Shown here: piece by piece, positions 5,960 through 44,061 of the stretch
How the letters are laid out: every line of letters begins with the position of its first letter
How positions within the stretch are numbered: position 1 is the stretch's first letter
NCBI RefSeq assembly: GCF_029633915.1
Contig: NZ_CP091092.1
Span: 682,001-746,000 of the forward strand
DNA from: Methanomicrobium antiquum
GTDB lineage: Archaea > Halobacteriota > Methanomicrobia > Methanomicrobiales > Methanomicrobiaceae
Direction of reading: 5' to 3'
DNA length: 64,000 bases
Program-made: the position numbers and the translations under genes
Notes under the pieces: generated by a model
Told to the model about the DNA's origin: nothing
Database searches by the model: none
The model's input: only the letters and a program-made list of their open reading frames with translations

Positions 5960-5985
5960 GTTAGATCCCCATTTGTTACTATTAT

Positions 5986-7536
5986 TTAGGCTTCTAAAAC
6001 AATTTTAGCGTTCAATTTTTGTGCAAATTCTTTTGCTGAGTTAATGTCTTCCCATTTTGAGATGGTAATGCATTTTAGTCCTTTCCCTGTGCTATATACC
6101 GGAAAAGGAATATCTTTATGCTCCTCTTTTTTAGCATTTTTTGCCAATTTTGGAGGAATTATTCTCTGAGATAATGTCAATTTTTTAATTTTTTTATCAT
6201 TTAGATTCCTTCTAATTTTTTCAGCCTGTCCCTTTTGAATTGTGTAGTTCATGATCAGTTCTAATGATTGAGGTGAAAAATCAGGAATTGATCTCTCTTC
6301 TTCAGTTATAATTGGAAAATCAATTAAATTATCTCCTGTTTTTGATAATTCTAATATTTTATCATCAGCAACTCCAAGAAGGAGGCTGTGGCTTAATTTC
6401 CAGGGACAACTTTTAAACCATTCTGAAACAATAGATTCGATTTTTTTGACTTCATCTTTATTTAATAAAACCGATGTTTCAAATCCGCTTTCAAGACCAA
6501 GTCTTGTAAAATTTGATGTAATAATAATTCCTGATTCTCCATCTACTAAAACACATTTTGCATGAAAACGTGAGTGACCCAAAATTGAGGCATTATGCTC
6601 TGCAAGTTTTAATAGTGCTTTTGTACTTTTAGGTGTCTGTTTTGTTCCGATTTGAATAGAAACACCACGGGAAGAGGCATCTTCTAATTCTTTAACAATT
6701 TGATAATCAGGATCAAATGACCATCCTGTAATATAAATTGATTTTTTAGCACCTGTAATTAATTCAATCAGGTATTTTCTTAATGTTTTAGATTTATTGG
6801 TCGTTACCGGCAGAGTAATTTCTCCCAAATCAGGTTTGAAAGAGAGATCTTTTTTCACAGCTCTTAATTTACCTGGTTCCAGAAGTTCATGATCTGCCAT
6901 CTCCCAAAAGCCATTAAGAAAATGTGAAAAAAATGATAATATTTCATTTTTCTTAAGTGAAACGGCTATTTCAATATTTGAACCTGTCATAGGATCAACA
7001 GTAGCATTACAGGTCATCATCAATCCAAATGGATTATCCGAAAGAGGATCAATCAGAATATATTTGGCATGAAAACTATCGCATGTCCTGACAAGTATCT
7101 TCCCAGCAAAAGAATTTAGAAGTGCAATGTGATCTTTTATTATATCACTCTCTTCTTCCAGATTTTCACTATTAATATTTTTGAGATCTTCTTCTCTTGC
7201 AGTTAATAGGAAAACTTTCACTCCCCTATTTTCAGCTTCTAGAAGAGCCTCAGTAACAGGACTTTTTTGAATAAGAAATGATGATAGATAAATTTCATCG
7301 TGAGCTTTTTCAATATTTTTAACTAAATATTTGATCAATTCACCCTTTTTAGAAGGTATGATAATATCCCGTTGGGTTTCTCTTATTATGTCGGCATTGA
7401 AAACCGCAAGGTTATTTAAATCCGCAACTTTTTTGCTTGCCCAGCATGTTCCAAGTGTCTCATCTTCAAAACTGAATGTTTCTTGGATTGGTTTTTCAAG
7501 AGATTTTAAGATATTACCAGAATAATTGATTGTCAT
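5986..7536 (-). CDS. Phospholipase-D-superfamily nuclease-like protein with two HKD motifs
   Basis: 516 residues. Two PLD catalytic motifs are visible: FHAKYILID about residue 157, and SRFHAKCVLVDG about 323 followed by GIIITSNFTRLG. Each repeat also has the downstream Asn/Thr strand (MMTCNATVDP, ITSNFT). Two motifs in one chain can form a complete active site. PLD proteins without membrane segments next to helicases are usually nucleases, so a nucleic acid substrate is likelier than a lipid. The C-terminal 120 residues are basic and unassigned. The gene begins one base after the 539-codon gene ends, so the two are tightly coupled. Confidence 0.85.
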   Translation of the reverse strand: MTINYSGNILKSLEKPIQETFSFEDETLGTCWASKKVADLNNLAVFNADIIRETQRDIIIPSKKGELIKYLVKNIEKAHDEIYLSSFLIQKSPVTEALLEAENRGVKVFLLTAREEDLKNINSENLEEESDIIKDHIALLNSFAGKILVRTCDSFHAKYILIDPLSDNPFGLMMTCNATVDPMTGSNIEIAVSLKKNEILSFFSHFLNGFWEMADHELLEPGKLRAVKKDLSFKPDLGEITLPVTTNKSKTLRKYLIELITGAKKSIYITGWSFDPDYQIVKELEDASSRGVSIQIGTKQTPKSTKALLKLAEHNASILGHSRFHAKCVLVDGESGIIITSNFTRLGLESGFETSVLLNKDEVKKIESIVSEWFKSCPWKLSHSLLLGVADDKILELSKTGDNLIDFPIITEEERSIPDFSPQSLELIMNYTIQKGQAEKIRRNLNDKKIKKLTLSQRIIPPKLAKNAKKEEHKDIPFPVYSTGKGLKCITISKWEDINSAKEFAQKLNAKIVLEA

Positions 7537-7537
7537 A

Positions 7538-9142
7538 TTATTTCACCCTCTTAAATGTAAGTAGTTCTGGAGCTGTAAAATACCAGTATTTTTGTGGATT
7601 TTTATCCTTTACTTCGATGATTTCATTTTTCAGTTCATTAAAAGAACTAACTCCCTTCATTAATTCATCATAATCAAATCTCTCTTTAAAACGCAGGATT
7701 ACTTTTTCACAGAGAGCATTATACGAGTCTCTATCTATGTAATAATTGATTGAACTGGAAATAAGAGAATTTGACCATAAAACAGCATCCTCTAAAGTTT
7801 TAGGGAGTAATGTTATATTTTGGATTGAAACATCATTGAAAGTTCCAAATCCTTCTATAACCGGGGATTTTATTTTCAATGACTTTTTTCCCGAATTTAT
7901 TTCAGAAGGATTATTTTTAATTTCAGAGAATTTTATTAGAAGAGTAGGTTCATTTTCAAATTCAATAATATCACTGGCATGTTCAGCAACCATTTTTTTC
8001 AGGATTTCAAGGAGTGATATATTTATCGCAGGTTGACAGACAGATTTTATCTTTGTTTCCTCTTTTTTTCTCTTATCATATGTAGATGTATAAACTTCCA
8101 TCTCCGGAGACTGTTTTGATGAGAATTTAAGACTAATTGATATTTTTTTACTTTGTTCGGAGTGGTTTACTTCTCCTTCAATATTTAGCAGTTGTATTTC
8201 TTCTCTGTTCTGTGCATCTAGTTCAACAATTTTAGGAGAATTTTGTAATGATTTTATTATTTGTTTTAGCCATTCCGGATTTTCGAATTTTTGATTCTTA
8301 TTTTTTTTATTTTCATTTTGAGCATTTTTCCTTGATTTTTCTTCAAAATCCTGTCTTTTATTTTCAGATTTAGGTTCACATGCAATCAGTTTTTCACGGA
8401 AAACCGGGTCCTCAGTAGTATAAAGAACAAATAGACCTTTTTCAGGGATGGGTATTTTTCCAGTTTCAAGTGCCTTCCTTCCAATTTCTGTCAATGTATA
8501 ATTATTATTATTATTATCTTTGAGATTTTCAAATTCAAAGGATTTGGCATTGTGATTGTTTTGAGAAACTCTCTCTATGAAGCCCATGGATTCAAGCGAA
8601 CTGAAGAGTTGATTCTCTTCTTCATTTTTAGGAGTGTATGGCCAGGAAGAAATTAATAGAGGTTTGCATTTATATGATTGTGAATAATATGATCGAGAAT
8701 ATTGGTCGTATTCATCTGGTTTGAATTTTAAAAGGCCTAATTGTGTAAGAGAATTTAGGAGTTCCTCATCAAAATCTTCATAAGTGTCCATGAATTTTTT
8801 ACTTTTCAGAAGATTTACAAATTTTTCTCCTCGATCATTGCGATCATACGTCAAATATTCTGAATGATTATTCTGCTCAATTTTGACGGATTCTTTTTTA
8901 ATCAGGCTGGATCCTTTTTCAATAAGCTTGTATTGTTCAATTCTGTCTAACAGGCGTTTCCCCATTATATTATTTGGAATTTTATTGAGAAGCTTAGTAT
9001 TTACCTGCTCTGCTGTAATTCCACCTTCTTCTTCTAATTTTAAGACAGGGAGAAGAAAGTCATAATCTTTGTTAAATGATGCAATCTCCATTATTGCCTC
9101 ATAAGATTTGACTGAAATATTCCGTTCAAGTTTAATTTCCAT
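7538..9142 (-). CDS. Winged-helix-containing protein between helicase and PLD genes
   Basis: 534 residues from ATG 9142, which follows GGAGGT by a normal spacing; an earlier ATG at 9157 would include the ribosome site. Residues about 20-75 (ITAEQVNTKLLNKIPNNIMG, RLLDRIEQYKLIEKG) and about 215-235 (YTLTEIGRKALETG) look like winged-helix elements. A charged Lys/Asn-rich linker follows (about 260-300). The C-terminal half is mixed alpha/beta and not recognised. No catalytic motif was found. Its start overlaps the helicase gene by 11 bases, so it likely works with helicase and PLD as an adaptor or DNA-recognition subunit (inference). Confidence 0.7.
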   Translation of the reverse strand: MEIKLERNISVKSYEAIMEIASFNKDYDFLLPVLKLEEEGGITAEQVNTKLLNKIPNNIMGKRLLDRIEQYKLIEKGSSLIKKESVKIEQNNHSEYLTYDRNDRGEKFVNLLKSKKFMDTYEDFDEELLNSLTQLGLLKFKPDEYDQYSRSYYSQSYKCKPLLISSWPYTPKNEEENQLFSSLESMGFIERVSQNNHNAKSFEFENLKDNNNNNYTLTEIGRKALETGKIPIPEKGLFVLYTTEDPVFREKLIACEPKSENKRQDFEEKSRKNAQNENKKNKNQKFENPEWLKQIIKSLQNSPKIVELDAQNREEIQLLNIEGEVNHSEQSKKISISLKFSSKQSPEMEVYTSTYDKRKKEETKIKSVCQPAINISLLEILKKMVAEHASDIIEFENEPTLLIKFSEIKNNPSEINSGKKSLKIKSPVIEGFGTFNDVSIQNITLLPKTLEDAVLWSNSLISSSINYYIDRDSYNALCEKVILRFKERFDYDELMKGVSSFNELKNEIIEVKDKNPQKYWYFTAPELLTFKRVK

Positions 9143-12104
9143 TTTTATAACCTCCAAATTCTATATCCCCGGGCGTACTTTCTGTTGCCAGTGCTTTGAG
9201 GAACACAGATTTACTTCTCTCAAAATTTTGTTTATCCCCAAACATAACCAGCTGATAACGTGCTCTTGTAACTGCTACATTCAGCCGATTCTGGAAATTC
9301 AGAAATCCAATGCTTGATTTTTTGCAGCGCTTATTATCCCTTCTACGACAGGACTGAACAAATGATAAGAAAACTAAATCAGCCTCATGACCCTGAAAGC
9401 GATCAACGGAGCATATTTTCACAGAAATATTGCAATCCTGGCGAACAAATTCAGATGAAATACCATTTTTTGCAGAAATATCAGCCAATTCATCTTTTAA
9501 CTTTTTTTCCTGTCCTTTATAGAAAGAAAGGACGGCTATTGACCAAAGACCATATTTATCGCCAGGATTTGGATTAGATTTAGCCCAATGAATAAATTCA
9601 TTGAGAGATTTTTTTATAGCTTTAACTTCTTTCAAATTGTACTTTGATTTCCCAAATCCCAAATCCTCTTTTGAGGGCTTTAGATCTATCCAGACACATC
9701 GTGAACTATATGTATTATATTTCCAATCTCGCTCATTTTTCATCCTTTCATCGCCGTTTGCGTTTTTTAAGGCCTTGCCTTCATAAATATACTTTCGTGG
9801 CAGATTGGATATATCAGGATGCATCCTGTGCTGATATGTCAAAAGGGTATGGCGAATATCTAAAATCTCAGGATTTTTCCCACCATAAGAAAGACCGCTG
9901 TATAAAGCTATAAGATCATGATCTCTCCTTTTTGAATGTGTCTCAAATCCTTCCTGAAGTAATTCAAGGACGGAAGGAAGAGCAATTCTCCGTATCTTAT
10001 CGATCTCATTTTTTACAAGATCAAACCTCGGTTTATGCTTTCTTGAATCATCCGTTTTGGGATTATCTCTTTCATATTTGGGAATGAGTAGATCCACTTC
10101 AGAGGAAAGCTGATCATAATCAGCAGAATTTTTTAACTCATGCATTCTGCTGATTCTCCAGGCGATCTCACCTTCCCAGGATTTGTTTTCATAAGTTTTA
10201 GCATTCCAGGCATTTCTTTTTCGAATGAATTGATCTGAAAAAAAACCATGAATTTCATTATCATTGAAATAAACATCAGGCGGCAGATATGATCCTATTT
10301 TAGAGACTAAATTTTTCTTGGCAATAAGGAAATTTGATCCAAGAATTTCAAGTTTTTCTGAATAACTACTTGGAGTTTGAGAAATCCCTTTACATGTAAG
10401 GATTTCATTTTTAATTTTATGCTCTTTGCAATAGTTATTTGTCTCTTCGGCTTGTTTTAGGGAATATTTATAAAAATCAGAAACATCTTCATCTGTTTCT
10501 TTAATCATAAGAACATTTTTTGGACCTCTATCAAATCCTGATGCCTGGAATGCTGCAAAACAAATTTCACGGTCTTTTTGTCCATTCTCCTTTGTAAATG
10601 ACGGAAGATTGCTAAGGTTCTCTTCTATCGGAGTCTGATCCACATATGGGGATAATTGTTTAACATCACCAGATAAAATCCATTTCCTGCCGTATAGAGC
10701 AGGTACAAGAAATTCCTGGAATGTTGTTTTGGAGGCTTCATCCAGTATCACAAGATCAAATAGAGGTTCTGTCAGGTGAGTGTTTTTTATGATTGGGGCT
10801 TGTAATATTCCAATGGTTGTGCCACAGATTAGATTCGCTACATCAAGAAGAAGCGTTTGAAGGTTCTTTTTTGCATCAGCCTTATTTTTTGTAAGTGATA
10901 GGTTCCATATTTTTTGTGATTCTGTCAAACTGCCTGATGTGGATTTACTGTTTAGAAAATTTATAAGATCATTTCTTTCATTTTCTACAAAATTATTAAG
11001 GCAGTAAGGTTTTATTAAATCCGAAACATTATCCTCATCACCTATCCTTAAAGGGATAGCCCCACATGCTTCTTTTAGAGTTTTTTCTCCTTCAGCTGTT
11101 TGAACATAGGTTTCAAGAAGTTTTTCAATAACATTATCAACTGCAACATGAGTCGAAGCTACCATTAAAACTCGCTGATTTCTCGATATAGCCTGTGCAA
11201 TTAATTCCAGAATTGTGGTTGTTTTTCCTGAACCCGGCGGTCCTTCAAGAATTGCGAAATCCGGCGTACCCCATGCTTTTCTAACGAATTCACGCTGTTC
11301 ATCGGTCCCATCCCTGTTTTTATCGGTGAGCAAAAACCACATTTTAGGATTAAATGATGTATCACTATTCCCCCAACTGAAATCACGCTCCTTTTGTCTG
11401 AAAAGATTTAAAAGGGGGATCTGATGTCTTTGAGGCGATAAGGCCAGATCTTCAATTGCCTGACGTTGTCTTTGAATTATGTAAGTATTGTATTTTGCCC
11501 AGAAGGTTCCATTTTCAGGTAATTCATTGACAATAATTGACTCTTCTCGTTTTAACTTATTTCTGAAACGGATATTCCTTGTTTTTCCTTTAGACTTTAT
11601 CTCAATTGTGTCTGAATCAGACAGAAAATTCAGAGCCAGATCCTCTTCATCTTCTCGTACTCTTTTTTCATCAGAATTCCCATTATCAGAAGTTGAGACC
11701 AATTCGGGATGAATATTGTTCAGAGTAAATTCCTGAGGAGTGAATTGAAAAGGATATGTCATTCCGTTGGATTTAACATAAACGATCTTGTTGATATAGG
11801 GCCCTTCAATTAGCTTAATGGTTTTTTTATCCCTGTTAATATGATTCTCCTGGATTCTGTTCGTCAGTTTCTCATCAAGAAATATGCCCTCTGAAGAAAA
11901 CGGGTTGAGATTAATATCTGCATCTGTAGCTGAAATTTTGCCTGTTGCATTTTTTGTGCTAAAAGAAAACTTATAGCGTTTTTTCTTCAATCTAAATTCA
12001 GCCTGGTTTAAAAAGATCTGAAAATCTTTGAGTCTTTGAACGACTCTATCCTCTAGTTGCTCTGGATCTTCCTCTCCAAGGTTGGCGTAGTATAGATTAT
12101 TCAT
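9132..12104 (-). CDS. Upf1-like superfamily 1 helicase (AAA_11/AAA_12)
   Basis: 990 residues. Walker A is GPPGSGKTTT about residue 290, followed by motif Ia (VLMVASTHVAVDNVIE). Walker B is DLVILDEASKTTF about 450 and motif III is WILSGDVKQLSPYV. The second RecA domain has LLTYQHRMHP, then RFQGHEADLVFLS about 900 and NVAVTRARYQLV about 943. These define the Upf1/DNA2/NAM7 group acting on RNA or DNA. The first 280 residues are a family-specific domain, and an insertion of about 250 residues lies between the RecA halves. It overlaps the CARF gene upstream by one base and the winged-helix gene downstream. Helicase plus PLD nuclease recalls Mokosh anti-phage systems, but with separate subunits and a CARF partner. 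Confidence 0.92.
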   Translation of the reverse strand: MNNLYYANLGEEDPEQLEDRVVQRLKDFQIFLNQAEFRLKKKRYKFSFSTKNATGKISATDADINLNPFSSEGIFLDEKLTNRIQENHINRDKKTIKLIEGPYINKIVYVKSNGMTYPFQFTPQEFTLNNIHPELVSTSDNGNSDEKRVREDEEDLALNFLSDSDTIEIKSKGKTRNIRFRNKLKREESIIVNELPENGTFWAKYNTYIIQRQRQAIEDLALSPQRHQIPLLNLFRQKERDFSWGNSDTSFNPKMWFLLTDKNRDGTDEQREFVRKAWGTPDFAILEGPPGSGKTTTILELIAQAISRNQRVLMVASTHVAVDNVIEKLLETYVQTAEGEKTLKEACGAIPLRIGDEDNVSDLIKPYCLNNFVENERNDLINFLNSKSTSGSLTESQKIWNLSLTKNKADAKKNLQTLLLDVANLICGTTIGILQAPIIKNTHLTEPLFDLVILDEASKTTFQEFLVPALYGRKWILSGDVKQLSPYVDQTPIEENLSNLPSFTKENGQKDREICFAAFQASGFDRGPKNVLMIKETDEDVSDFYKYSLKQAEETNNYCKEHKIKNEILTCKGISQTPSSYSEKLEILGSNFLIAKKNLVSKIGSYLPPDVYFNDNEIHGFFSDQFIRKRNAWNAKTYENKSWEGEIAWRISRMHELKNSADYDQLSSEVDLLIPKYERDNPKTDDSRKHKPRFDLVKNEIDKIRRIALPSVLELLQEGFETHSKRRDHDLIALYSGLSYGGKNPEILDIRHTLLTYQHRMHPDISNLPRKYIYEGKALKNANGDERMKNERDWKYNTYSSRCVWIDLKPSKEDLGFGKSKYNLKEVKAIKKSLNEFIHWAKSNPNPGDKYGLWSIAVLSFYKGQEKKLKDELADISAKNGISSEFVRQDCNISVKICSVDRFQGHEADLVFLSFVQSCRRRDNKRCKKSSIGFLNFQNRLNVAVTRARYQLVMFGDKQNFERSKSVFLKALATESTPGDIEFGGYKNGN

Positions 12105-12589
12105 TATAACTCTCCTTTAAAAAGATCTTTAAAAATTTGTATATTATCGCCATTTTTCACCATATTTTGAAAAATATCAATCGTAATAACATCATTATTT
12201 TCATTATTAACCACATAATGAGCTTTTAATCCGGCAGAAAAGCATAACATCCCCATCGAAAGAACCATTAGATTGGTTCCTCCGGTTAATCCTGCGATTA
12301 TGTGATTTATACCATCATTTGAATAAAGAGAATATGCATCAAGCATTTTTTTAGTCATATTCTCCAGAGCTTTTTCTTCAAAAGGATCAAGTAAAACGGT
12401 TTCCAGGACATTAATCTCTTTTTTCTTAATATCCTTAATAAATTCCAGGTTTTCGTTAATCAGATTGATTGATGTAAAAAACACAATATTACGTATCTCG
12501 TAGTATTCAATGACACGGTTTATATGCTCCTTAGAGTTTCCAAGGAGAAGAAAATGTATTATTTTAGATTTCTGTTTATTGTCTTTCAT
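12104..12589 (-). CDS. Stand-alone CARF-domain protein
   Basis: 161 residues forming one CARF-like Rossmann domain and nothing else. The first strand and loop are KIIHFLLLGNSKEH; the signature ligand loop is IIAGLTGGTNLMVLSMGMLC (about 93-112), as in Csm6/Csx1-type sensors where TGGT contacts a cyclic oligonucleotide. There is no effector domain, so it should pass a signal to a partner. The stop shares one base with the helicase start, making the helicase the obvious partner. No cas gene is nearby, so the ligand is unknown. Confidence 0.72.
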   Translation of the reverse strand: MKDNKQKSKIIHFLLLGNSKEHINRVIEYYEIRNIVFFTSINLINENLEFIKDIKKKEINVLETVLLDPFEEKALENMTKKMLDAYSLYSNDGINHIIAGLTGGTNLMVLSMGMLCFSAGLKAHYVVNNENNDVITIDIFQNMVKNGDNIQIFKDLFKGEL

Positions 12590-12723
12590 TTTATTCTTCC
12601 ATCATCTAAAAAATATTGTCCTAAATAGTTATCTGTTTGAAATTATTGAATTTAAATAATTCATATTCTGCTCTGAATTTACTTTTTTCATAAGTATATC
12701 CTGTTTTTAAAAATATCCAGATA

Positions 12724-13944
12724 TCAGGAACACAATGAAATAACATTCAAGCTATCTTCTACTGAAATATTATTATCCATATTTTGTAACCATTCAAATA
12801 ATCCTGCATTTCTCTGATTTTTTTTATTTTTAAAATGAAATTCATTATTTTTTGTGAAAATCATTTTCAGATATGATTTTTTTTCTTTTTCTTTCATATA
12901 TATTATTGGTAATTCATTTTCAATATCCATTGCAAGAATTATTTTATCGTGATTATTTCTTATTTCTGAAGCTGATAACCGGTTCTTATAATTGACTATG
13001 TTATGAATTGAAAGGAGAGTTTCTATGTCTTTAGGATTTATTATGCCTATAAAAACCTGTTTTTTTATCAATTCAATTCTATCTAAAAAATTCACAGAAT
13101 TAAAATCTTCAGATCTACATAATTTTATAATTTCTTTTACACATTCATCATGTATCTCTTTATAATCAAAATTAATTCCAAAATTTAATAAATTTAATTC
13201 TTTTGCTTTTTCAGAAAAAACAAGGCTATTAAGAGGGACAGATTCTGAATTGTTGTTGATTTTACTTTTAATCTCTTCGATTGAAGGAAAAGTAATAAAA
13301 GAATCGGATTCTTCTGTGAGTAAAAGATTTTTCCATTGAATTATTTTATTTTTTGAATTTTCTGCAATTATCAATAGAAAAGGTACTGACTCTTGGTTTA
13401 AAATCTTAGACAAAATTCGCTTTTTATATTTAATTTCGTTAGCCAGACTGATGATATGTCCTTTTGGAATCGCTGACATAATCTCACAGAAGCATACCTG
13501 GCCGGCTCCATCAACAAACAACATATCAAATTCGCCTAAATCCTGACCATTTCCTCTTAAAACAATATCACCTTCCCCATTATAAAATAAGCCATTTTGT
13601 CCATAAACGGCTTTCTGGCTAAAAATAATAGCATCATCCTTCTTTTTTACAATTGCCCTGACAAAGTCGCATTTGGTTAAGATCTCAAGCATTTGCTCAT
13701 ATACAACAGATTCAAATAATTTTCCCTGTGCGATTCCTTTCGCAGAATTATTATTTGAATCAAGATTTTTAAGACTCTGTTTGCTAAGATGCCTTAAGGA
13801 GCAGTTTATTAGTTCATCTGTCGGTTCAATATGGCCGAATAATTCGCTAATACATACAGGTAAGGATTTCATTTCATTTGAAAGTCCTTTGATGCTCATT
13901 ACATTCTGATAATCTGCTGAATTTATTGCTTCCATGTTTTCCAC
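12724..13944 (-). CDS. PD-(D/E)XK-nuclease-like protein, first gene of module 1
   Basis: 406 residues. Residues about 65-175 fit a restriction-endonuclease-like core: a helix with KGIAQGKLFESVVYEQML, then GEFDMLFVDGAGQVCFCEIM, where Asp and Glu take the usual metal positions. The lysine of the E-x-K half is replaced by Met, so either it has moved or activity is lost. Similar cores are fused to CARF in Card1/Can2-type nucleases, but no CARF is seen here. The C-terminal 200 residues are unassigned. It is 134 bases upstream of the CARF gene and divergent from the CARF-winged-helix gene, with a palindrome in between. Confidence 0.55.
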   Translation of the reverse strand: MENMEAINSADYQNVMSIKGLSNEMKSLPVCISELFGHIEPTDELINCSLRHLSKQSLKNLDSNNNSAKGIAQGKLFESVVYEQMLEILTKCDFVRAIVKKKDDAIIFSQKAVYGQNGLFYNGEGDIVLRGNGQDLGEFDMLFVDGAGQVCFCEIMSAIPKGHIISLANEIKYKKRILSKILNQESVPFLLIIAENSKNKIIQWKNLLLTEESDSFITFPSIEEIKSKINNNSESVPLNSLVFSEKAKELNLLNFGINFDYKEIHDECVKEIIKLCRSEDFNSVNFLDRIELIKKQVFIGIINPKDIETLLSIHNIVNYKNRLSASEIRNNHDKIILAMDIENELPIIYMKEKEKKSYLKMIFTKNNEFHFKNKKNQRNAGLFEWLQNMDNNISVEDSLNVISLCS

Positions 13945-13970
13945 CTCAATTTTTGAGAATTTTTAACTAT

Positions 13971-13988
13971 GTTCCATATATATGAAAC
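13971..13988. promoter_or_regulatory. Palindrome in the divergent promoter region of module 1
   Basis: GTTCCATATATATGAAAC is a near-perfect 18-bp palindrome that includes a TATATAT core, 27 bases upstream of the minus-strand operon start at 13944. It could be an operator over a TATA box, and the divergent CARF-winged-helix protein is the natural candidate to bind it. Confidence 0.5.
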
Positions 13989-14073
13989 ATTTTTCAGCCT
14001 TCAGGAGAATCTGGTTGATCACCTTTCAGGTTAATATTGAAATTATCCAGAAAACATTATAGCATATATTGAT

Positions 14074-14100
14074 GATATTCAATATTATATGTTGAATATC
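14074..14100. promoter_or_regulatory. Perfect 9-bp inverted repeat across the start of the CARF-winged-helix gene
   Basis: GATATTCAA at 14074-14082 and TTGAATATC at 14092-14100 are perfect inverted repeats with a 9-base spacer. The ATG (14089-14091) lies in the spacer. The site could be an autoregulatory operator or an mRNA hairpin hiding the start codon. Confidence 0.6.
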
Positions 14101-14754
14101 CACATTTTAACTGCAGGGGCAAATGTTGATAAAGGAATTCAAAGAATTACCCGTTTCTATCCTGTTGAAAAATATGTAATAATAACTGAAGAAAACCCAC
14201 CTGATGATGTTCAGATGAGTATTGAAAAAGTGATTGAAGTATGCCATTCAGCGCTTGATATTCCGTTAGATGTGATTCCTTATAAAAAAGGAGATTTAAA
14301 TGATCTAATGGAAAAAATTATTGAAATCAGAAAAAATTATCCTGAGGCGAAGTTATATTTCAATATAACATTTGGACGTAAGGATTTTGCCATAATGACA
14401 TTTATGGGGGCATTGTGGCTGGATGGAATTGGATATTATCTTCCAAAAGAGTTTGAAAAACCTTTGGAATTTCCTACTCCAAAAATGCCTATGAACACAC
14501 TTTCAAAGAATAAATTGTATCAGCAGATTCTGAGAGAGCTAGTTGGAAATACAAATCAAAGAATCAACCAGAGTATTCTAAAAAACAGGATTTCTAAAAA
14601 TCCAAATAATAATAAAACACTTAGTTCCCAGGTTCTCTCACAGGCAATTGGTGTTCTTGAGGAGGCATCTCTTGTTAATAAAGAAGTAAACGGCAGAGAG
14701 ACAATAATTTCTATCACGCTTGCCGGAAGGATTGCCTACTCCATGTTACCTTAA
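14089..14754 (+). CDS. CARF-winged-helix regulator (Csa3/DUF6293-like), module 1
   Basis: 221 residues. The N-terminal half is CARF-like: IHILTAGANVDKGIQRI, then strand and loop LYFNITFGRKDFAIMTFM (about 84-101) at the ligand site, where FGRK replaces the usual GGTK. Residues about 140-221 are a winged helix with LSQAIGVLEEASLVNKEV and a wing (ETIISITLAGRIAY). Csa3-type proteins use this layout to couple a cyclic-oligonucleotide signal to transcription. It is divergent from the module 1 operon, so it probably controls it. The start sits inside an inverted repeat. An IS66 element begins 12 bases after its stop. Confidence 0.78.
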   Translation: MLNIHILTAGANVDKGIQRITRFYPVEKYVIITEENPPDDVQMSIEKVIEVCHSALDIPLDVIPYKKGDLNDLMEKIIEIRKNYPEAKLYFNITFGRKDFAIMTFMGALWLDGIGYYLPKEFEKPLEFPTPKMPMNTLSKNKLYQQILRELVGNTNQRINQSILKNRISKNPNNNKTLSSQVLSQAIGVLEEASLVNKEVNGRETIISITLAGRIAYSMLP

Positions 14755-14766
14755 TTTTTATTCAAA

Positions 14767-16306
14767 TGTAACTATTCACCCCGTTAAACTATTTTAAGTC
14801 CATTTAACCGCCAGATCTTTATATAATGGTCGCAGATTAATTTTTAATGGATATGCTTTCTGATCGGGAACAGATATTACATTTTGTTCTAACCAATCCC
14901 CAAGCTGCAACTGATCTCATTTTGGATTTACATCAGATAGTTAAAAAACAGGCTGAAAAGATCATTGAACTTGAAGAACGAATCGAGAAACTAGAGGCAC
15001 AACTAAAACAAAATAGCCGCAATAGCAGCCTTCCGCCTTCAACTGACATTTACAAACCAAAACCAAAAAGCCTGCGGAAAAAAAGCGGCAGGAAACCCGG
15101 GGGTCAGAATAATCATAAGGGTAAAACCCTTAAAATGGTGAAAGATCCTGATGAAATCATCTCACATCCGGTTTCAATATGTAAATGTGGGCATACTCTC
15201 AGGAAAATTAAACCTTTTAAAATTTTGAAAAGACAGGAATTTGAAATTCCACCCGTTAAAATCAAAGTAATCGAGCACCAGGCAGAAGTAAAGATCTGTC
15301 CTGTCTGTGGAAAAAAGACTGTTGGCAAATTTCCATCATATGTTACAAATCCGGTTCAATACGGTCCTAATTTTAAGTCAGAAGTGATGTACCTGAAGGA
15401 TGAACTTATGCTGCCATTCGAAAAAACATCAACATATTTCAAAGATAAATATGGTCAAAAGATTAGTCCGGCTACAATTCTGAATATTTGCATGGAGGCA
15501 TATGAATCTCTGGATAAATTTGAACATGAGGTCGAAGAAAATTTACTCCAATCGCCTGTTTTACATGCAGATGAAACCGGATTAAGAGTTCTTGGAAACA
15601 GATGGTGGCTGCATACGATAGGTAATGAGAGATTGACTTTGTACGCTGTTCATCAAAAAAGAGGATCAAAAGCGGTTGATGATATTGGAATTATTTCAAA
15701 ATTCAAAGGAATTCTGGTACATGATTTCTGGGCAACATATTTCAGATACGATTGTAAGCATTCTCTTTGTAATGCTCATATTATGAGGGAATTAGAAGGA
15801 ATTGTCGACGGTTACAAACAAAAATGGGCTGGAAAGATGAAGTCTCTCTTAGAAAATATTTATGATTTCATATTTGTTAAGAAAAAACGAGACCAAGAGA
15901 AACTGATTGAATTTAAACAGATTTATCAGACTGTTTTAAAGGGAGGGTTTGAAGAAAATCCACCGCCAGTACGGCCTGATGATAAAAAGAGGGGACGGAT
16001 TAAGAAGTCAAAACCACTTAATCTTCTGATGAGGATGGATGAGTATCGCGAAGATATTCTGAGGTTTATGTACAATTCTATCGTACCATTTACAAACAAT
16101 CTGGCAGAACGAGATGTCAGAATGATGAAAGTACAACAGAAAATTTCAGGGACGTTTAGATCAAGAGAGGGAGCAGAGATTTTCTGCAGAATCAGAGGGT
16201 ATATCTCAACTGTCAGGAAAAATGGGAAGTCAGTGTATGAGGCTCTGAAAAAACTGGCCGAAGGTCAGCCCTTCAATGTTCAGGATCTCATAGCTGAATA
16301 GTTACA
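14767..16306 (+). mobile_element. IS66-family insertion sequence
   Basis: Terminal inverted repeats TGTAACTATTCA (14767-14778) and TGAATAGTTACA (16295-16306) match perfectly over 12 bp. TTCAAA flanks both sides (14761-14766, 16307-16312) and is probably the target duplication, although 8 bp is commoner in IS66. It contains a single transposase gene and no small accessory genes, as in archaeal IS66 members. It appears intact. Confidence 0.88.
14847..16301 (+). CDS. IS66-family transposase
   Basis: 484 residues, full length. The N-terminus is a leucine-zipper-like coil (QIVKKQAEKIIELEERIEKL) followed by the IS66 sequence LKQNSRNSSLPPSTD and a basic GRKPGGQNNHKG segment. A zinc-binding region follows (CKCGHTLRK, CPVCGKK). 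The DDE core has VLHADETGLRVLG (Asp), LVHDFWATY (Asp) and FTNNLAERDVRMMK (Glu). The TAG stop lies in the right terminal repeat. It is plausibly active. Confidence 0.93.
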   Translation: MDMLSDREQILHFVLTNPQAATDLILDLHQIVKKQAEKIIELEERIEKLEAQLKQNSRNSSLPPSTDIYKPKPKSLRKKSGRKPGGQNNHKGKTLKMVKDPDEIISHPVSICKCGHTLRKIKPFKILKRQEFEIPPVKIKVIEHQAEVKICPVCGKKTVGKFPSYVTNPVQYGPNFKSEVMYLKDELMLPFEKTSTYFKDKYGQKISPATILNICMEAYESLDKFEHEVEENLLQSPVLHADETGLRVLGNRWWLHTIGNERLTLYAVHQKRGSKAVDDIGIISKFKGILVHDFWATYFRYDCKHSLCNAHIMRELEGIVDGYKQKWAGKMKSLLENIYDFIFVKKKRDQEKLIEFKQIYQTVLKGGFEENPPPVRPDDKKRGRIKKSKPLNLLMRMDEYREDILRFMYNSIVPFTNNLAERDVRMMKVQQKISGTFRSREGAEIFCRIRGYISTVRKNGKSVYEALKKLAEGQPFNVQDLIAE

Positions 16307-16327
16307 TTCAAATTATAAATCAAGTGT

Positions 16328-17182
16328 TCAATTATTAATGATCTGAGTCTCTATTGAACTTTTTCGTAGAACCTCTTGTCCAAAGGACCCTATTGGATTA
16401 TATTCTATATATTCAGGCTTTTTTCCATTTCCAATAATTATTTTTTTGGCAGATATTTTACTTGCGTAACTTATTATTTGATCTGCCCCTTCACGCTCCA
16501 AATTATCCGGGTTTCCGGAAAATTGAAGAATCTCACAACTGCAATTTTTGTAATTGAAATTATTAATAAAATTTTCAATAATAATGAGATTTCGGTCTGA
16601 TTTGAGTGTTTCTTGTCTTGATTGTAAAGAACAATCCGGTCCACCATTAAATTTTTTACCACATCCAAATACCAGCATATGTAAATTTGGATTGCTAAAA
16701 ACAGGATGCTCTATTTTTTTCCCTAGATCTTTTGAATTAGGCATTATATAAAGTGCCTGAATGTCATAACCTAAATATTTTGAATATTCTGATGCGGTTT
16801 CCATTATTTTTATATCAGTTTTAGTGTCTTCCAAAACTGCAAGAATTGTAGGTTTTTGTTTAGATTTAGATGTCTCCAATAATTCATCTTTTTGTGTAGA
16901 ATTATTCTCCCCTGTAAAAATATGTCCTGTTCTATAAAGTAATCCCCCTTTTTTATAACTATTTTTATTAGCATTGACTGAACCTGAATTCGCAACTTCA
17001 TTAGATTCCTCAATATGTTCATATTGTGTTTTTAAATCCATGAGTTTACCTTTAAGTTCAACAATTTCAGATTGAATTTTCAACTCCTTTTCTTCAGTCA
17101 TTAATTTTAATAAGGCCTGTTCTTTTGAGAGGATTTTTTGTTCAATATCCTGAATTTCTTTCTCTAACTGCAAATTATTCAT
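16328..17182 (-). CDS. Coiled-coil / UspA-like domain protein downstream of viperin
   Basis: 284 residues. Residues 1-60 are a charged coiled coil (LEKEIQDIEQKILSKEQALL and onward), followed by a Ser/Asn-rich linker. Residues about 110-284 resemble a universal-stress-protein fold: PTILAVLEDTKTDIKIMETA at the first strand and helix, and EGADQIISYASKISAKKIII before GNGKK, then a C-terminal GSFGQEVLRKSS. UspA domains often bind ATP through a GxGS-type loop; the form here is degenerate, so nucleotide binding is uncertain. It lies 62 bases after the viperin gene and is probably cotranscribed. A nucleotide-handling partner, in the place where a kinase accompanies other prokaryotic viperins, is one idea; I cannot show it. 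Confidence 0.6.
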   Translation of the reverse strand: MNNLQLEKEIQDIEQKILSKEQALLKLMTEEKELKIQSEIVELKGKLMDLKTQYEHIEESNEVANSGSVNANKNSYKKGGLLYRTGHIFTGENNSTQKDELLETSKSKQKPTILAVLEDTKTDIKIMETASEYSKYLGYDIQALYIMPNSKDLGKKIEHPVFSNPNLHMLVFGCGKKFNGGPDCSLQSRQETLKSDRNLIIIENFINNFNYKNCSCEILQFSGNPDNLEREGADQIISYASKISAKKIIIGNGKKPEYIEYNPIGSFGQEVLRKSSIETQIINN

Positions 17183-17244
17183 TTAAAGCCTGCCACGTTT
17201 AGTATATTTTAATACAATAAAAATTATTAAAATTGCCTTTTATT

Positions 17245-18084
17245 TTAATTAATCCAGTTGTAAATTCCACCTCTCTGAAAGTAGTGATTAGAATTAATCA
17301 ATTCGGAAATATTATCCCTGGTTACACTTTCAAGTGGAATGTCGATACCTGGATATTCAGTGTTTATATGAACACACCCCGATGGAGAAAGCATGAAATA
17401 TGAATCCAGCATTTCTGCAGAACTTTCAAAAACAGGGAATTTTCCATTTTTCAACCTAATCTCCGAATTACGTTTTTTATAATTATTAAACTCTTCATCA
17501 GTAATCGAAAATAACTCGCATGCTTCATCATTTTGTCCGGGAACGTGCATGAACTGAAATACTTTCCATCTTTCAGGATTAAGTTCGTTTATTAATCCCC
17601 CCATATATTCATTTATTGATAATTTTGTAACGGTTGTGTTTATTTTTAATTTAATTTCACATTTTTCTGCTAATCTGGCAACCTGAATTGAATTTTGAAT
17701 ATGTTTGCCCAAACCCCTGCCTAGTTTTTTTTCTACAATTTCTGAAGCTGAATCGACTGATATGCCTATCCAGTCAAGATAAGGAGATATTCTCTTCAGT
17801 TTTTCATTATCAACAAGTGATCCATTAGTCACGATACTTGTTGTAAACCCCATTTCTTTGGCTTTTTCTACAAGTTCAAAGATTCTTGGACTCATGAAAG
17901 GTTCTCCACCAACAAAATTTACTTTTTCAATTCCAAGATCGTTTAATTTTTCATAAATATTCTCTGGTTTCAGAGATGCTTCCATTTCTCCTTTCATTTT
18001 TTGAGTACAACAAAACTTGCAATTGTAGTTGCATTTCGAAGTGAAATGCCAGTTTACTGAACGGATCATCTTATTGAATGTCAT
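17245..18084 (-). CDS. Prokaryotic viperin (radical SAM, ddh-nucleotide synthase)
   Basis: 279 residues. The N-terminus SVNWHFTSKCNYNCKFCC holds the radical-SAM CxxxCxxC motif (Cys 18, 22, 25). It also carries viperin-specific sequence: KVNFVGGEPF, VTNGSL, LDWIGISVDS, GRGLGKH, LNPERWKVFQ, a DSYFMLSP segment and the C-terminal end FQRGGIYNWIN, each with a near-identical counterpart in animal viperin. Viperins remove water from CTP, GTP or UTP to give 3'-deoxy-3',4'-didehydro nucleotides that terminate phage RNA synthesis. The N-terminal amphipathic helix of animal viperin is absent, as in other prokaryotic forms. GGAGATAAA precedes the ATG. It is divergent from a CARF-winged-helix gene. Confidence 0.9.
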   Translation of the reverse strand: MTFNKMIRSVNWHFTSKCNYNCKFCCTQKMKGEMEASLKPENIYEKLNDLGIEKVNFVGGEPFMSPRIFELVEKAKEMGFTTSIVTNGSLVDNEKLKRISPYLDWIGISVDSASEIVEKKLGRGLGKHIQNSIQVARLAEKCEIKLKINTTVTKLSINEYMGGLINELNPERWKVFQFMHVPGQNDEACELFSITDEEFNNYKKRNSEIRLKNGKFPVFESSAEMLDSYFMLSPSGCVHINTEYPGIDIPLESVTRDNISELINSNHYFQRGGIYNWIN

Positions 18085-18099
18085 TTTATCTCCATACCG

Positions 18100-18135
18100 G
18101 GTAAAGCTGTAGAATTTAGGTCTACAGGCATTACC
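18100..18135. promoter_or_regulatory. Extended inverted repeat upstream of viperin
   Basis: GGTAAAGCTGTAG (left) pairs with CTACAGGCATTACC (right) around a 9-base spacer, with perfect CTGTAG/CTACAG inner arms at 18107-18112 and 18122-18127. It lies 16 bases before the viperin ATG, so it may be an operator or a 5' leader hairpin. Confidence 0.5.
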
Positions 18136-18172
18136 TCAATGATAGTTTTAAAAAATACAGATAAAATTAAAT

Positions 18173-18204
18173 TTAGAAATAATTTCCAAAATTAGAAATA
18201 ATTT
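18173..18204. promoter_or_regulatory. Direct repeats upstream of the second CARF-winged-helix gene
   Basis: TTAGAAATAATTT occurs at 18173-18185 and 18192-18204, spaced 19 bases apart. The second copy runs into the AT-rich TTTATATTT just before ATG 18212. They may be binding sites for an autoregulator. Confidence 0.45.
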
Positions 18205-18211
18205 TATATTT

Positions 18212-19033
18212 ATGATTGAAATTACTTTTATGGTAGAACCAGAGGAAAAACATATTCATATTATGGCTGCAGGGGCCAGTATAGAAGAAACTTATCGTCA
18301 TATTGTGATGAATATTAAATCTCCTTATGGAAAACCAATTGATATAACCTATGTCCTGATTGAATCTGATGTTCTCAAAAATAATAATGATCCCAAAAAA
18401 ATCAGAATTAAACAGGCATATGATAATGTCAGAATCCTATCAGATCAATATAAAATAGAATATTATCCGGCAGAATTTGATAAATTAGATATTAATTCTA
18501 TAAGACATGCAATTGCTGACATTAAACTCAAATATCCAAATGCCTATTTCTCATTTAATATAACCGGTGGAACAAAAATCCACACAATAGGACTTTTATT
18601 AATGTCCATTTGGTTAATTGGTGATGCTTATTATGTATCCGAAGATTCAGAAATTCAGAAAATTTCAATTCCTAAAATGTATGTCGAAGATGTATCTTCA
18701 AATCCAAATTATATTTCAATTTTAAAAATATTGTCCGGGAAAAAAGAAGGAGAGTTAAGGAAATCTCTTGAAAGTAAAATGAGAGAGTTATATCGACCTG
18801 TTAGAAATACCGGAGATAAAAAAACAGACAGAGTAATGCACGGAGGTACCCTTACTAAAATGACTGAGGTTTTAGAAAACTGGGAATTAATTCAGGAAAC
18901 TGAGGTCTTTAAAACCAGTATGAAAGGTAAACAAAAAAGATCTGTTAAATCGGTTAATAAAAAAGAAAAACGATTTATTATAACAGAAAATGGAGAACTG
19001 GCTTTAAAATTTGCTTTAGCTAATAATAAATGA
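18212..19033 (+). CDS. CARF-winged-helix regulator (Csa3/DUF6293-like), module 2
   Basis: 273 residues. KHIHIMAAGASIEETYRHIV matches the first strand and loop of the module 1 regulator, and AYFSFNITGGTKIHTIGLLL (about 111-130) is a classic CARF ligand loop with GGTK intact. Residues about 165-273 are a winged helix with a long basic wing (VFKTSMKGKQKRSVKSVNKK). It should sense a cyclic nucleotide or similar ligand and act on DNA. It is divergent from the viperin operon, 127 bases away, and is likely its regulator. It is a paralogue of 14089-14754. The only unusual feature is the basic insertion in the wing. Confidence 0.78.
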   Translation: MIEITFMVEPEEKHIHIMAAGASIEETYRHIVMNIKSPYGKPIDITYVLIESDVLKNNNDPKKIRIKQAYDNVRILSDQYKIEYYPAEFDKLDINSIRHAIADIKLKYPNAYFSFNITGGTKIHTIGLLLMSIWLIGDAYYVSEDSEIQKISIPKMYVEDVSSNPNYISILKILSGKKEGELRKSLESKMRELYRPVRNTGDKKTDRVMHGGTLTKMTEVLENWELIQETEVFKTSMKGKQKRSVKSVNKKEKRFIITENGELALKFALANNK

Positions 19034-19127
19034 ATGATTTTGTTGATAAAAACAGAAATGATTTCCAAGTATGGTTTTATTAAATCTCTGTTCATTATTT
19101 GTTATCAAGAAAAGGAGGTGAAAATAA

Positions 19128-19256
19128 GTGAGTAAAAAAGCAATGACACCATCAGCGGCTGGACGTATTCAGGCTGCTGCAGCAAAGACGGGGAACAATT
19201 CAGGTTTTGCATCAAGAGCACAATCCGCTGCTGCTAAAAATGCAGGGAAAAAATAA
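19128..19256 (+). CDS. Small Ala-rich SMP-like protein, 42 aa
   Basis: A small gene with an excellent ribosome site (AAAGGAGGTGA) 8 bases before GTG 19128. The product reads SKKAMTPSAAGRIQAAAAK, then NSGFASRAQSAAAKNAGKK. This MTPxxAxRIQ...FAxRAQSAAAKN pattern recurs in short bacterial and archaeal proteins resembling the plant seed-maturation (SMP) motif, often on plasmids and islands; their role is unknown. It follows the CARF-winged-helix gene by 94 bases on the same strand. Confidence 0.75.
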   Translation: MSKKAMTPSAAGRIQAAAAKTGNNSGFASRAQSAAAKNAGKK

Positions 19257-19868: not shown

Positions 19869-21638
19869 TTATAAAGATTCAAATCCCTGTTTGATTATAT
19901 CTGTCATTAAGAGTCGTCGTCTTTCAAGGAATTCAGTATATTCCATATTTTCCCAATTATCGGGCAATGCATGATTTATGTGCATGAGTCTCCATTGTTC
20001 CTCTGTAAATTTTTTTTCTTCTTTAATTTTTAGAAGGTATTCTTGCGGCGGAGTGTCGCTAATTCTTATATTATCTGGCCATTCTACGAATGAGAAATTT
20101 GCCACCTGATTTATTAGTTTAAAATCTTCTATTCCTTCACGCATTAAGTAAGCTTTTGGAAAGAGATGATGCCTATCCATAAATTTCTTTTTAGCTTTTA
20201 TTGAAGGGTCAAGGAGATTGGATATGTACTTATTTGAAAATAATGCTGTTGAATTTTGCTTTATTTGTGAGGCATAAAATGCATATATTACAGGATTACG
20301 TACAGAAGAGGTAATTAATTCATTTGGAAGAGATATTGTCCAAAAATCAGGTGTCAGAGTATTATTTATTGCATTTTCCAGAACGCTTTTAAACTCTTCT
20401 TCTGTTTGAAGATCTTTTATGAGATTTAAATCACTGTCCATCATTGATTCTGGGGAACTGCTATATCTTCCAGAGAGAGTTATTGTATAGAACCATCTTG
20501 AGATTAACCTATCAAGTTCATATTGTGCAAGTTTGAACTGATTTTTTCCAATAAGATAGAATGCATATGCAAATAGAAGGGCATTTTCCGATGATATCAG
20601 ATTGCCACTCTTAAAACCTGCACCCTGTAGAGCTGAGAAAAACTGATGCCAATTTGTTAAATCAAGTACAGATTTCTGGCTGATTCTTAGTTTTTCAAAT
20701 TGTTCATTTCTTTTTTCTTCCGAATATTTTCCTGTAGTATGATCCTTGCCTCTGAGTATTTGATAGACACTTTGTAATTTTCCACGCTTAAAAGCAAGAG
20801 CAACTGATACTCTTAGCAATTGATCAGGAGACGGTGTTATGAAATGATTATAGGGTGAGGGTTTTCCGCCAGGTTTTACAGGGAATCGCGATTCGTAACA
20901 GAATGTTTCAAGTTCTTTCCTTAAATCTTCGCCGAATACTGAAAGTAATGTAAGGATAAAATCAGATTGATTGAGTTTGACACCTTCACTGTTTATTCTT
21001 ACAAATATATCGGCTACCTGCGCTTCATCAACTGTTGAGGCGATTTCAAGGGCAGTAAAGGGGTACTTCTGAAGATCAAACAATCTGTCAAGATTATGGC
21101 TTATTTTGTCTTCTTCTTCATCGGAAATCTCCCTTTTTTCCTTTATTTTGTTTAGGAAATCCTTTACAATTGTATAACTAGATTTTCCATCTGACCAAAT
21201 TTTTGATATATCATCTATAAATTCAGTATCCTTTTTTGTAGCGGCATCAGATACACTAAACTTTCCATCTGTTGGTCTAAATGCAATTTCTATTATCTTT
21301 TCCTGATAATTTTCATCCTTTACAGGTTGTCCACGAAATACAGAATAAAGAGATGTTAACCTTTGCTGGCCGTCAATGATAAGTAGATTTGGAATTTTAT
21401 GCTGTTTTCCTTCAGTTCCAATCTGCCTAACATCTGTTCTTGAAGGATTGTTCCAAAACAGGAGGTACCCAATTGGAAATCCCCGATACATGGAATCAAA
21501 CAGATCCCTGACTTTAGATGCAGACCATACAAAAGGACGCTGAATATCCGGAAGACCAATGTCTCCTATCTCAATATATGTAAGCAGACTTGAGAGATCC
21601 ATATCCACTTTTTTAAAAATTGTTCTATCTTCATTCAT
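19869..21638 (-). CDS. GmrSD-type modified-DNA restriction enzyme (DUF262-DUF1524)
   Basis: 589 residues from ATG 21638 (an in-frame start at 21677 adds 13 unlikely residues). The N-terminal DUF262 (GmrS-like) shows LPDIQRPFVWSASKVRDLFD and IIDGQQRLTSLY, the DGQQR motif that binds and hydrolyses nucleotides. The C-terminal DUF1524 (GmrD-like) has an HNH-type motif, DRHHLFPKAYL (about 486), followed by NQVANFSFVEW. One chain holds both halves, as in GmrSD fusions that cleave glucosylated hydroxymethylcytosine DNA; the modification recognised here is unknown. It is followed by the EVE gene. Confidence 0.9.
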   Translation of the reverse strand: MNEDRTIFKKVDMDLSSLLTYIEIGDIGLPDIQRPFVWSASKVRDLFDSMYRGFPIGYLLFWNNPSRTDVRQIGTEGKQHKIPNLLIIDGQQRLTSLYSVFRGQPVKDENYQEKIIEIAFRPTDGKFSVSDAATKKDTEFIDDISKIWSDGKSSYTIVKDFLNKIKEKREISDEEEDKISHNLDRLFDLQKYPFTALEIASTVDEAQVADIFVRINSEGVKLNQSDFILTLLSVFGEDLRKELETFCYESRFPVKPGGKPSPYNHFITPSPDQLLRVSVALAFKRGKLQSVYQILRGKDHTTGKYSEEKRNEQFEKLRISQKSVLDLTNWHQFFSALQGAGFKSGNLISSENALLFAYAFYLIGKNQFKLAQYELDRLISRWFYTITLSGRYSSSPESMMDSDLNLIKDLQTEEEFKSVLENAINNTLTPDFWTISLPNELITSSVRNPVIYAFYASQIKQNSTALFSNKYISNLLDPSIKAKKKFMDRHHLFPKAYLMREGIEDFKLINQVANFSFVEWPDNIRISDTPPQEYLLKIKEEKKFTEEQWRLMHINHALPDNWENMEYTEFLERRRLLMTDIIKQGFESL

Positions 21639-43905: not shown

Positions 43906-44061
43906 ATCTAAGAATTAGTCTAAAAAGTGTAAATATTTTTAAAAATATTTTAAAATTGGGTTTTAAGTTCATTTAAGGCCATTATCGCCTCTTTTTGAAA
44001 AAATAAAAGCATTTATAAAGCTTTTTTTTCAATATAAATTTTCATTATCAATCTTTCAGTT

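What the first reader, a model, noticed from the sequence alone, without database searches (positions are those of the whole stretch)
13971..14100. Paired operator candidates between the PD-(D/E)XK-like gene and its divergent CARF regulator
An 18-bp palindrome over a TATATAT core faces the operon, and a perfect 9-bp inverted repeat surrounds the regulator's own ATG. One site per promoter is what a dual auto-and-operon repressor would need.
Basis: partly seen in the sequence, partly recalled or inferred. Interest (0 to 1): 0.55.

Follow-up and report, generated by a model that had tools for sequence, protein, structure and literature searches.

The report
Misread operators beside archaeal defence genes
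Both DNA repeats are really there, but they are not a matched pair of switches: one looks like the control site of an antiviral-gene regulator carried over from another location, the other mostly overlaps an ordinary promoter, and the convincing regulator switch of this region lies about 4,000 bases away.

Summary
Both repeats exist. The palindrome (13969-13990, 22 bp, one mismatched pair) overlaps the probable TATA box of the leftward PD-(D/E)XK-like gene (PDX). The perfect 9-bp inverted repeat (14074-14082/14092-14100) spans the ATG of the CARF-wHTH gene (CARFreg1). They are not copies of one operator. The gene pair is not ancestral: relative G001 carries CARFreg1 divergent from viperin, and an uninterrupted copy of the neighbouring viperin operon, so window 12645-17213 is an insertion. 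Homology with G001 covers CARFreg1 and its promoter and stops at 14040, where G001's viperin begins. The inverted repeat lies inside it (block 29/30 identical) and sits 35 or 41 bp from G001's viperin start. That is nearly where a two-dyad operator (GAAAYWRTTTC-N8/9-GAAACAATTT) sits in related viperin-regulator loci: 16 of 17 regulator-linked viperins against 0 of 5 unlinked, 38-39 bp from the start in 14 of 16. The window's copy of that operator is at 18176-18205. Best reading: 14074-14100 is CARFreg1's single shared site for both divergent promoters; 13969-13990 is PDX's TATA region, weakly resembling half of the other operator. Fixed spacing argues for an activator at the effector promoter. 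No binding has been shown.

The parts
13969..13990 (.). 22-bp palindrome, one mismatched pair; core ATATATAT is the probable TATA box of the leftward PDX gene
   Evidence: TATA centre to predicted start site about 26 bp, then GAGGTGG and ATG 13935 (inference from sequence; rule in PMC4333418)
14074..14100 (.). GATATTCAA-N9-TTGAATATC around the CARFreg1 ATG; candidate CARFreg1 operator
   Evidence: left arm 8/9 and right arm 9/9 kept in G001; ends 35 or 41 bp before viperin in G001
14040..14073 (.). overlapping divergent promoter region inherited from a CARFreg1-viperin locus; leftward promoter now without its viperin gene
   Evidence: homology to L046 begins at 14040; TTATAG-(C)ATATA kept
14089..14754 (+). 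CARFreg1, CARF-wHTH regulator, 221 aa
   Evidence: PADLOC Csa3 2.2e-21; Pfam HFX_2341_N 2.6e-5 and DUF6293_C 0.003, both under cut-off; low-confidence model, best PDB match Csa3 2wte
12724..13935 (-). PDX, PD-(D/E)XK-like protein, 403 aa; start probably ATG 13935, not GTG 13944
   Evidence: relatives in 115 of 120 genomes, best 34% identical; invariant E75, D101, D137, E151, K171/K172; no Pfam, PADLOC or NCBIfam match
12645..17213 (.). insertion relative to G001 copy L047 (PDX, CARFreg1, IS66 transposase, UspA-like gene), splitting viperin from the rest of its operon
   Evidence: blastn blocks 5579-12644 and 17214-19256 abut in L047 at 10478/10482
12104..12589 (-). stand-alone CARF protein, 161 aa
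   Evidence: PADLOC CARF models, best 6.5e-11
9132..12104 (-). SF1 helicase, MkoA-like
   Evidence: AAA_11/AAA_12; MkoA 5.4e-88
7538..9157 (-). 539-aa protein of unknown family
   Evidence: no significant match
5986..7536 (-). PLD-family protein, DrmC/MkoB-like
   Evidence: PLDc_2 2.4e-27; DrmC 7.2e-23, MkoB 5.9e-13
17245..18084 (-). prokaryotic viperin, C-terminus altered by the insertion (279 aa against 300 in L047)
   Evidence: NF038283 3.3e-73 over cut-off
18176..18205 (+). two-dyad operator GAAATAATTTC-N8-GAAATAATTTT between viperin and CARFreg2: the best-supported operator of this region
   Evidence: best match of the 64-kb window to a matrix made without G000/G001 (22.5; next separate site 12.9)
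18212..19033 (+). CARFreg2, CARF-wHTH regulator, Csa3-like
   Evidence: PADLOC Csa3 2.8e-53

Best explanation
The interval is a recombined divergent promoter, not an evolved operator pair. Rightward, CARFreg1 kept the promoter it has in G001, where it faces viperin. The inverted repeat 14074-14100 is most likely CARFreg1's own DNA site. It lies over the regulator's predicted start site and ATG, where binding would limit the regulator's own expression, and just upstream of the leftward core promoter, where binding could recruit or hinder TBP/TFB for leftward transcription. One shared site would thus do both jobs. Leftward, viperin has been replaced by PDX, which brings its own TATA box; that TATA box with its symmetrical flanks is the 13969-13990 palindrome. 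Leftward transcription through PDX into the CARF-helicase-PLD genes may start at PDX's own promoter, at the old viperin promoter near 14055-14070, or both. Shown: the sequences, the insertion, the G001 arrangement, the conserved operator class and its spacing elsewhere. Inferred: binding by CARFreg1, start sites, sign of regulation, ligand.
For: Insertion and native partner. Conservation of 14073-14102 at 29/30 against a mean of 22.2/30 along the CARFreg1 alignment. In G001 the repeat ends 35 bp (first ATG) or 41 bp (second ATG) before viperin; the operators of the related CARFreg2 family end 38-39 bp before viperin in 14 of 16 loci. That operator is present at 16 of 17 viperins with a neighbouring CARF regulator and 0 of 5 without (right strand and position; Fisher p 0.0002, sequences not independent). 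The 17th is the CARFreg1 locus of G001, whose regulator is far off in the tree (branch 2.71). 0 of 29 relatives of PDX have the palindrome or operator upstream. Csa3a precedent: sites upstream of BRE/TATA, and over TATA and start codon (PMC4333418; passages, section 21).
Against: Only one ortholog of CARFreg1 was found (searches of 120 and 392 genomes, partly the same ones), so conservation rests on a single comparison. A coding stretch at 14459 is just as conserved (29/30), and the right arm is coding. The repeat is not rare in this AT-rich DNA. TATA boxes and start sites are predicted by eye. No binding or expression data exist.
Confidence: 0.55

Rival explanations
1. One reading: CARFreg1 is a repressor with two operators of its own, 13969-13990 for PDX and its operon and 14074-14100 for itself.
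For: Both repeats are real; arms ATGTTCCATAT and ATATTCAATAT agree at 9 of 11. In two relatives (G006, G016 second locus) where regulator and viperin are not divergent, each promoter does carry its own operator.
Against: The 9/11 agreement is reached by 354 of 2000 shuffles; spacing and symmetry differ; PDX is not the native partner; the palindrome lies outside the DNA that came with CARFreg1.
Confidence: 0.15
2. The palindrome at 13969-13990 is an operator for CARFreg2 (18212-19033), resembling the inner half of its family's site (RTTTC-N8-GAAAC), and keeps the displaced effector genes under the old regulator.
For: GTTCC-ATATATAT-GAAAC has the same N8 geometry; inner-dyad score second-best site in 64 kb and p 0.003 by shuffles, full site p 0.014.
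Against: The comparison was made after seeing the likeness. The outer half-sites are missing; the full score (12.4) is about fourth among separate sites in the window. It lies over TATA rather than upstream of it. RTTYC-N8-GRAAY occurs 62 times in the genome against 43 for the control.
Confidence: 0.2
3. Both repeats are chance symmetry in AT-rich promoter DNA: a self-complementary TATA box, and a coding arm that happens to match upstream sequence.
For: 24 comparable 9-bp repeats in the window; TATATATA is its own complement; right arm encodes MLNI.
Against: Flanks beyond the TATA core are also symmetrical (such palindromes expected 0.002-0.007 per 144 bp); left arm, non-coding, is 8/9 kept in G001 inside a 29/30 block and sits near the family's operator position.
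Confidence: 0.25

Closest known systems
Csa3a of Sulfolobus islandicus and its csa1/cas1 sites (PMC4333418; passages and section 21 read)
   Same: CARF-wHTH protein encoded divergently from the genes it controls; imperfect palindromes upstream of BRE/TATA and over the start codon; published site has TTC and GAAA ends
   Different: Controls cas adaptation genes; here the family faces viperin-led operons, and 17 of 20 such genomes, G000 included, show no Cas10 palm domain. Site spacing differs.
MM_0565 of Methanosarcina mazei (PMC7465815; passages read)
   Same: Methanogen CARF protein that binds its own promoter over BRE/TATA
   Different: Linked to a type I-B CRISPR locus; no distinct binding motif was identified there
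Csa3 of Saccharolobus solfataricus with cA4 (PMC8844856; passages read)
   Same: Fold of the nearest solved structures (2wte, 6wxq); expected to bind two palindromes
   Different: Its CARF pocket binds cA4, yet cA4 did not change specific DNA binding; CARFreg1 has NITFGRK where CARFreg2 has NITGGTK
Mokosh defence (MkoA helicase, MkoB PLD; PADLOC models)
   Same: Helicase and PLD-family genes in one operon
   Different: Here with an added CARF gene, a 539-aa unknown between them and viperin, under a CARF regulator

Membership tests
Csa3-type CARF-wHTH regulator (CARFreg1) | N-terminal CARF domain | tested here: met
   PADLOC Csa3 2.2e-21; best Foldseek match Csa3 2wte E 3e-6, model of low confidence, first 130 residues pLDDT about 56-83. 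Pfam hits below cut-off.
Csa3-type CARF-wHTH regulator (CARFreg1) | C-terminal winged helix | tested here: inconclusive
   DUF6293_C 0.003 under cut-off; C-terminal part of the model has pLDDT under 50
Csa3-type CARF-wHTH regulator (CARFreg1) | binds cyclic oligoadenylate | not testable with these tools
   Pocket motif deviates (NITFGRK); no Cas10 palm match in G000
Two-dyad operator of the viperin-linked regulators | GAAAY-W-RTTTC, N8/9, GAAACAATTT, for 18176-18205 | tested here: met
   Score 23.7, p<=0.005; its distance to the viperin ATG is 91 bp rather than the usual 38-39
Two-dyad operator of the viperin-linked regulators | same motif, for 13969-13990 | tested here: not met
   Inner half only; full score 10.9-12.4
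Two-dyad operator of the viperin-linked regulators | same motif, for 14074-14100 | tested here: not met
   Different sequence; the G001 counterpart region scores -0.6; only its position is similar
Archaeal TATA promoter (PDX) | A/T box centred about 26 bp before the start site | tested here: inconclusive
   Sequence fits; no start site mapped
PD-(D/E)XK nuclease (PDX) | catalytic D...ExK core in the fold | tested here: inconclusive
   Invariant E135xD137...FxE151 and K171/K172; no profile or PDB match; model unusable, pLDDT 34
Mokosh type I | MkoA plus MkoB | tested here: inconclusive
   MkoA 5.4e-88; PLD nearer DrmC models than MkoB

The most novel reading that the evidence does not exclude
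Methanogen viperin operons are switched by a family of CRISPR-independent CARF-wHTH activators that bind a two-dyad operator fixed 38-39 bp before the viperin start and sense a nucleotide signal not made by Cas10; CARFreg1 is a diverged branch with its own operator sequence at nearly the same position, and a recombination in this genome has handed that switch to a new gene, PDX, and the effector half of a split viperin operon.
Probability: 0.35. Interest if true: 0.7.

Novelty: new variant of a known kind. Interest (0 to 1): 0.48.

Why it matters
How archaeal viperins are switched on is, as far as I know, an open matter. I found no description of a CARF or Csa3 regulator for them in the library searched (the only paper holding both 'viperin' and 'Csa3' names Csa3b in its reference list; subscription papers are mostly not held). 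A conserved operator at a fixed distance gives defined DNA probes and a defined regulator. Since 17 of 20 genomes with such regulators show no Cas10 palm domain, it also makes the question of what CARF proteins sense outside type III CRISPR testable.

Tried and rejected
One shared motif for the two repeats: rejected, 9/11 agreement is common in shuffles. PDX palindrome as an ancestral PDX feature: rejected, 0 of 29 relatives. CARFreg1 using the GAAAC operator: rejected, G001 region scores -0.6. Wider homologs of the pair: genome contigs and viral-contig scans found none, nor did the searches of 120 and 392 genomes. Structure of PDX from one sequence failed (pLDDT 34); profile against PDB gave nothing. 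phmmer of both regulators against PDB gave nothing useful. The first motif search found viperin coding sequence instead and was repeated on non-coding parts. No target-site duplication could be defined at the insertion.

Results against the reading, restated: the operator matrix finds nothing in 4 viperin-facing regions of family f8 (L059, L062, L065, L069; p over 0.17); L056 and L064 reach p 0.025 only. One regulator-less viperin (L100) scores 15.0, on the other strand and at another place. Nine of 30 CARFreg2-like loci have no viperin beside them. The two own-genus copies have 91 bp, not 38. The 10 matrix sites were picked by eye; leave-one-genus-out scoring covers them, and 7 loci outside the set (two of them nearly identical) all reach p 0.01 or less. 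In one search, L083, L085, L086 and L100 gave 42-58-aa hits to the long L034 row, which I counted as no regulator.

Full report
OBSERVATION. Both repeats are in the sequence as described. The palindrome is longer than stated, 22 bp (13969-13990), and has one mismatched pair; the inverted repeat is perfect (14074-14082, 14092-14100) with the ATG at the end of its spacer. Arms of 11 with at most one mismatch occur twice in 64 kb; expected 0.002-0.007 per 144 bp. Perfect 9-bp arms with gaps up to 20 occur 24 times; expected 0.03-0.08 per 144 bp.

THE WINDOW. It is 64 kb of a 2.44-Mb chromosome (G000), archaeal by its gene content and relatives (inference). Leftward from the interval run PDX, a 161-aa CARF protein, an SF1 helicase like MkoA, a 539-aa unknown and a PLD protein like DrmC/MkoB; rightward runs a Csa3-like CARF regulator (CARFreg1). 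About 4 kb on lie viperin (leftward) and a second Csa3-like regulator, CARFreg2 (rightward).

THE LOCUS IS A RECOMBINANT. Relative G001 (same genus) has two loci. On L047, CARFreg2 (99% identical) faces viperin-CARF-helicase-539-PLD without interruption; the flanking DNA is 94-98% identical to window 5579-12644 and 17214-19256, which abut there. So 12645-17213 (PDX, CARFreg1, IS66 transposase, UspA-like gene) is an insertion relative to G001, and it has altered the end of viperin. On L046, CARFreg1 (76%) faces another viperin-CARF-helicase-539-PLD operon, and no PDX relative is within the 16 kb read. Homology between window and L046 on the CARFreg1 side covers 14040-14753 and stops where viperin begins in L046. 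PDX has relatives in 115 of 120 genomes, the best 34% identical, and no closer one among 392; CARFreg1 has one ortholog, in G001. The gene pair was therefore seen only here.

THE PALINDROME. On the minus strand its ATATATAT core is followed after about 26 bp by a predicted start site, then a purine-rich GAGGTGG and ATG 13935, which fits an archaeal TATA box at -26/-27 (rule quoted in PMC4333418). PDX therefore probably starts at ATG 13935, the GTG at 13944 being part of the ribosome-binding site. None of 29 relatives of PDX has such a palindrome or operator upstream.

THE REAL OPERATOR OF THE REGION. A CARFreg2 search found 33 places in 27 of 392 genomes; 30 became loci and 21 of these have viperin beside the regulator. 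A de novo search of the intergenic parts of 18 such loci (without G000 and G001) returned GAAAYWGTTTC-N-GAAAC in its best sites (18-mer score over the best 10: 207.7; shuffles 140-143). Of 25 upstream regions scored with leave-one-genus-out matrices, 17 carry the two-dyad site at p 0.01 or less, among them 7 of 7 outside the training set; the others are 6 loci of family f8 and the two CARFreg1 regions. In a separate census, 22 viperin places lie in 19 of 120 genomes; 17 have a CARF regulator nearby and 16 of these have the operator on the same strand, against 0 of 5 without regulator (Fisher p 0.0002, with related sequences). It ends 38 or 39 bp before the viperin start in 14 of 16, and 91 bp before it in the two copies of this genus. 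In two loci where the genes are not divergent (G006 and the second of G016), regulator and viperin each have a copy. In the window this matrix's best hit is 18176-18205 (22.5; next separate site 12.9).

THE TWO REPEATS AGAINST THAT OPERATOR. The PDX palindrome GTTCC-ATATATAT-GAAAC resembles the inner half (RTTTC-N8-GAAAC): second-best inner dyad in the window, p 0.003 by shuffles, 0.014 for the whole site. The likeness was noticed first and tested afterwards, the outer halves are missing, and it lies on TATA. The repeat at 14074-14100 has another sequence, in line with the long branch (2.71) to CARFreg1. But its block 14073-14102 is 29/30 identical in G001 (mean 22.2; one coding stretch equals it), and in G001 it ends 35 or 41 bp before viperin's two candidate ATGs. 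Position, not sequence, is what it shares with the family operator. This is the best evidence that it is CARFreg1's site.

HOW IT MOST LIKELY WORKS. One CARFreg1 site, over the regulator's own start and just upstream of the leftward core promoter, serves both directions: probably autorepression rightward and activation leftward. Fixed spacing to the effector start suggests an activator, as for Csa3a on csa1 (protected -81 to -42). Csa3a on cas1 also covers TATA and the start codon. In this genome the leftward target has become PDX and, through it, perhaps the displaced effector genes. Binding, start sites, sign and ligand are inferred.

LIGAND. Of 20 genomes with such regulators, 3 have a Cas10 palm match and 17 do not, G000 among the 17 (only this one domain was searched). 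CARFreg1 reads NITFGRK where CARFreg2 reads NITGGTK; that this loop lines the ligand pocket is recalled.

LITERATURE. Read: passages of PMC7465815, PMC8844856, PMC12988326, PMC4333418 and its section 21. Searches for viperin with CARF, Csa3, regulator or helix-turn-helix listed no paper that, by title and abstract start, describes such a regulator for viperin; a search joining Mokosh, phospholipase D, helicase and CARF gave none.

Noticed in passing
12645-17213: Insertion splits a viperin-CARF-helicase-539-PLD operon that is intact in G001 and leaves viperin at 279 instead of 300 aa; no target-site duplication was evident.
   Followed up: partly
7538-9157: The 539-aa protein is 78% identical between G000 and G001 (L047), while its neighbours are 94-98% identical; it has no family match.
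   Followed up: no
L046, L047: G001 carries two diverged copies of the same viperin-CARF-helicase-539-PLD operon, each with its own CARF regulator.
   Followed up: partly
L059, L062, L064 (viperin-regulator intergenic regions): These three lack the GAAAC operator and share another dyad-rich stretch, about TATTTAATAAATAGATTTATTA, perhaps their own operator.
   Followed up: no
L094 and L102 with L072 and L079: Where the regulator is not divergent from viperin, a separate operator stands before each gene, the viperin one again 38 bp from the ATG.
   Followed up: partly
19869-21677: Protein matching PADLOC HEC-05 models (1.8e-33), a further defence candidate next to the viperin locus.
   Followed up: no
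L050 7592-8665 and 115 of 120 genomes: The PDX family is a nearly universal protein without a Pfam, NCBIfam or PADLOC match in this order; the window copy is a diverged extra one.
   Followed up: partly
43930-43951: The only other near-perfect 22-bp palindrome of the window.
   Followed up: no
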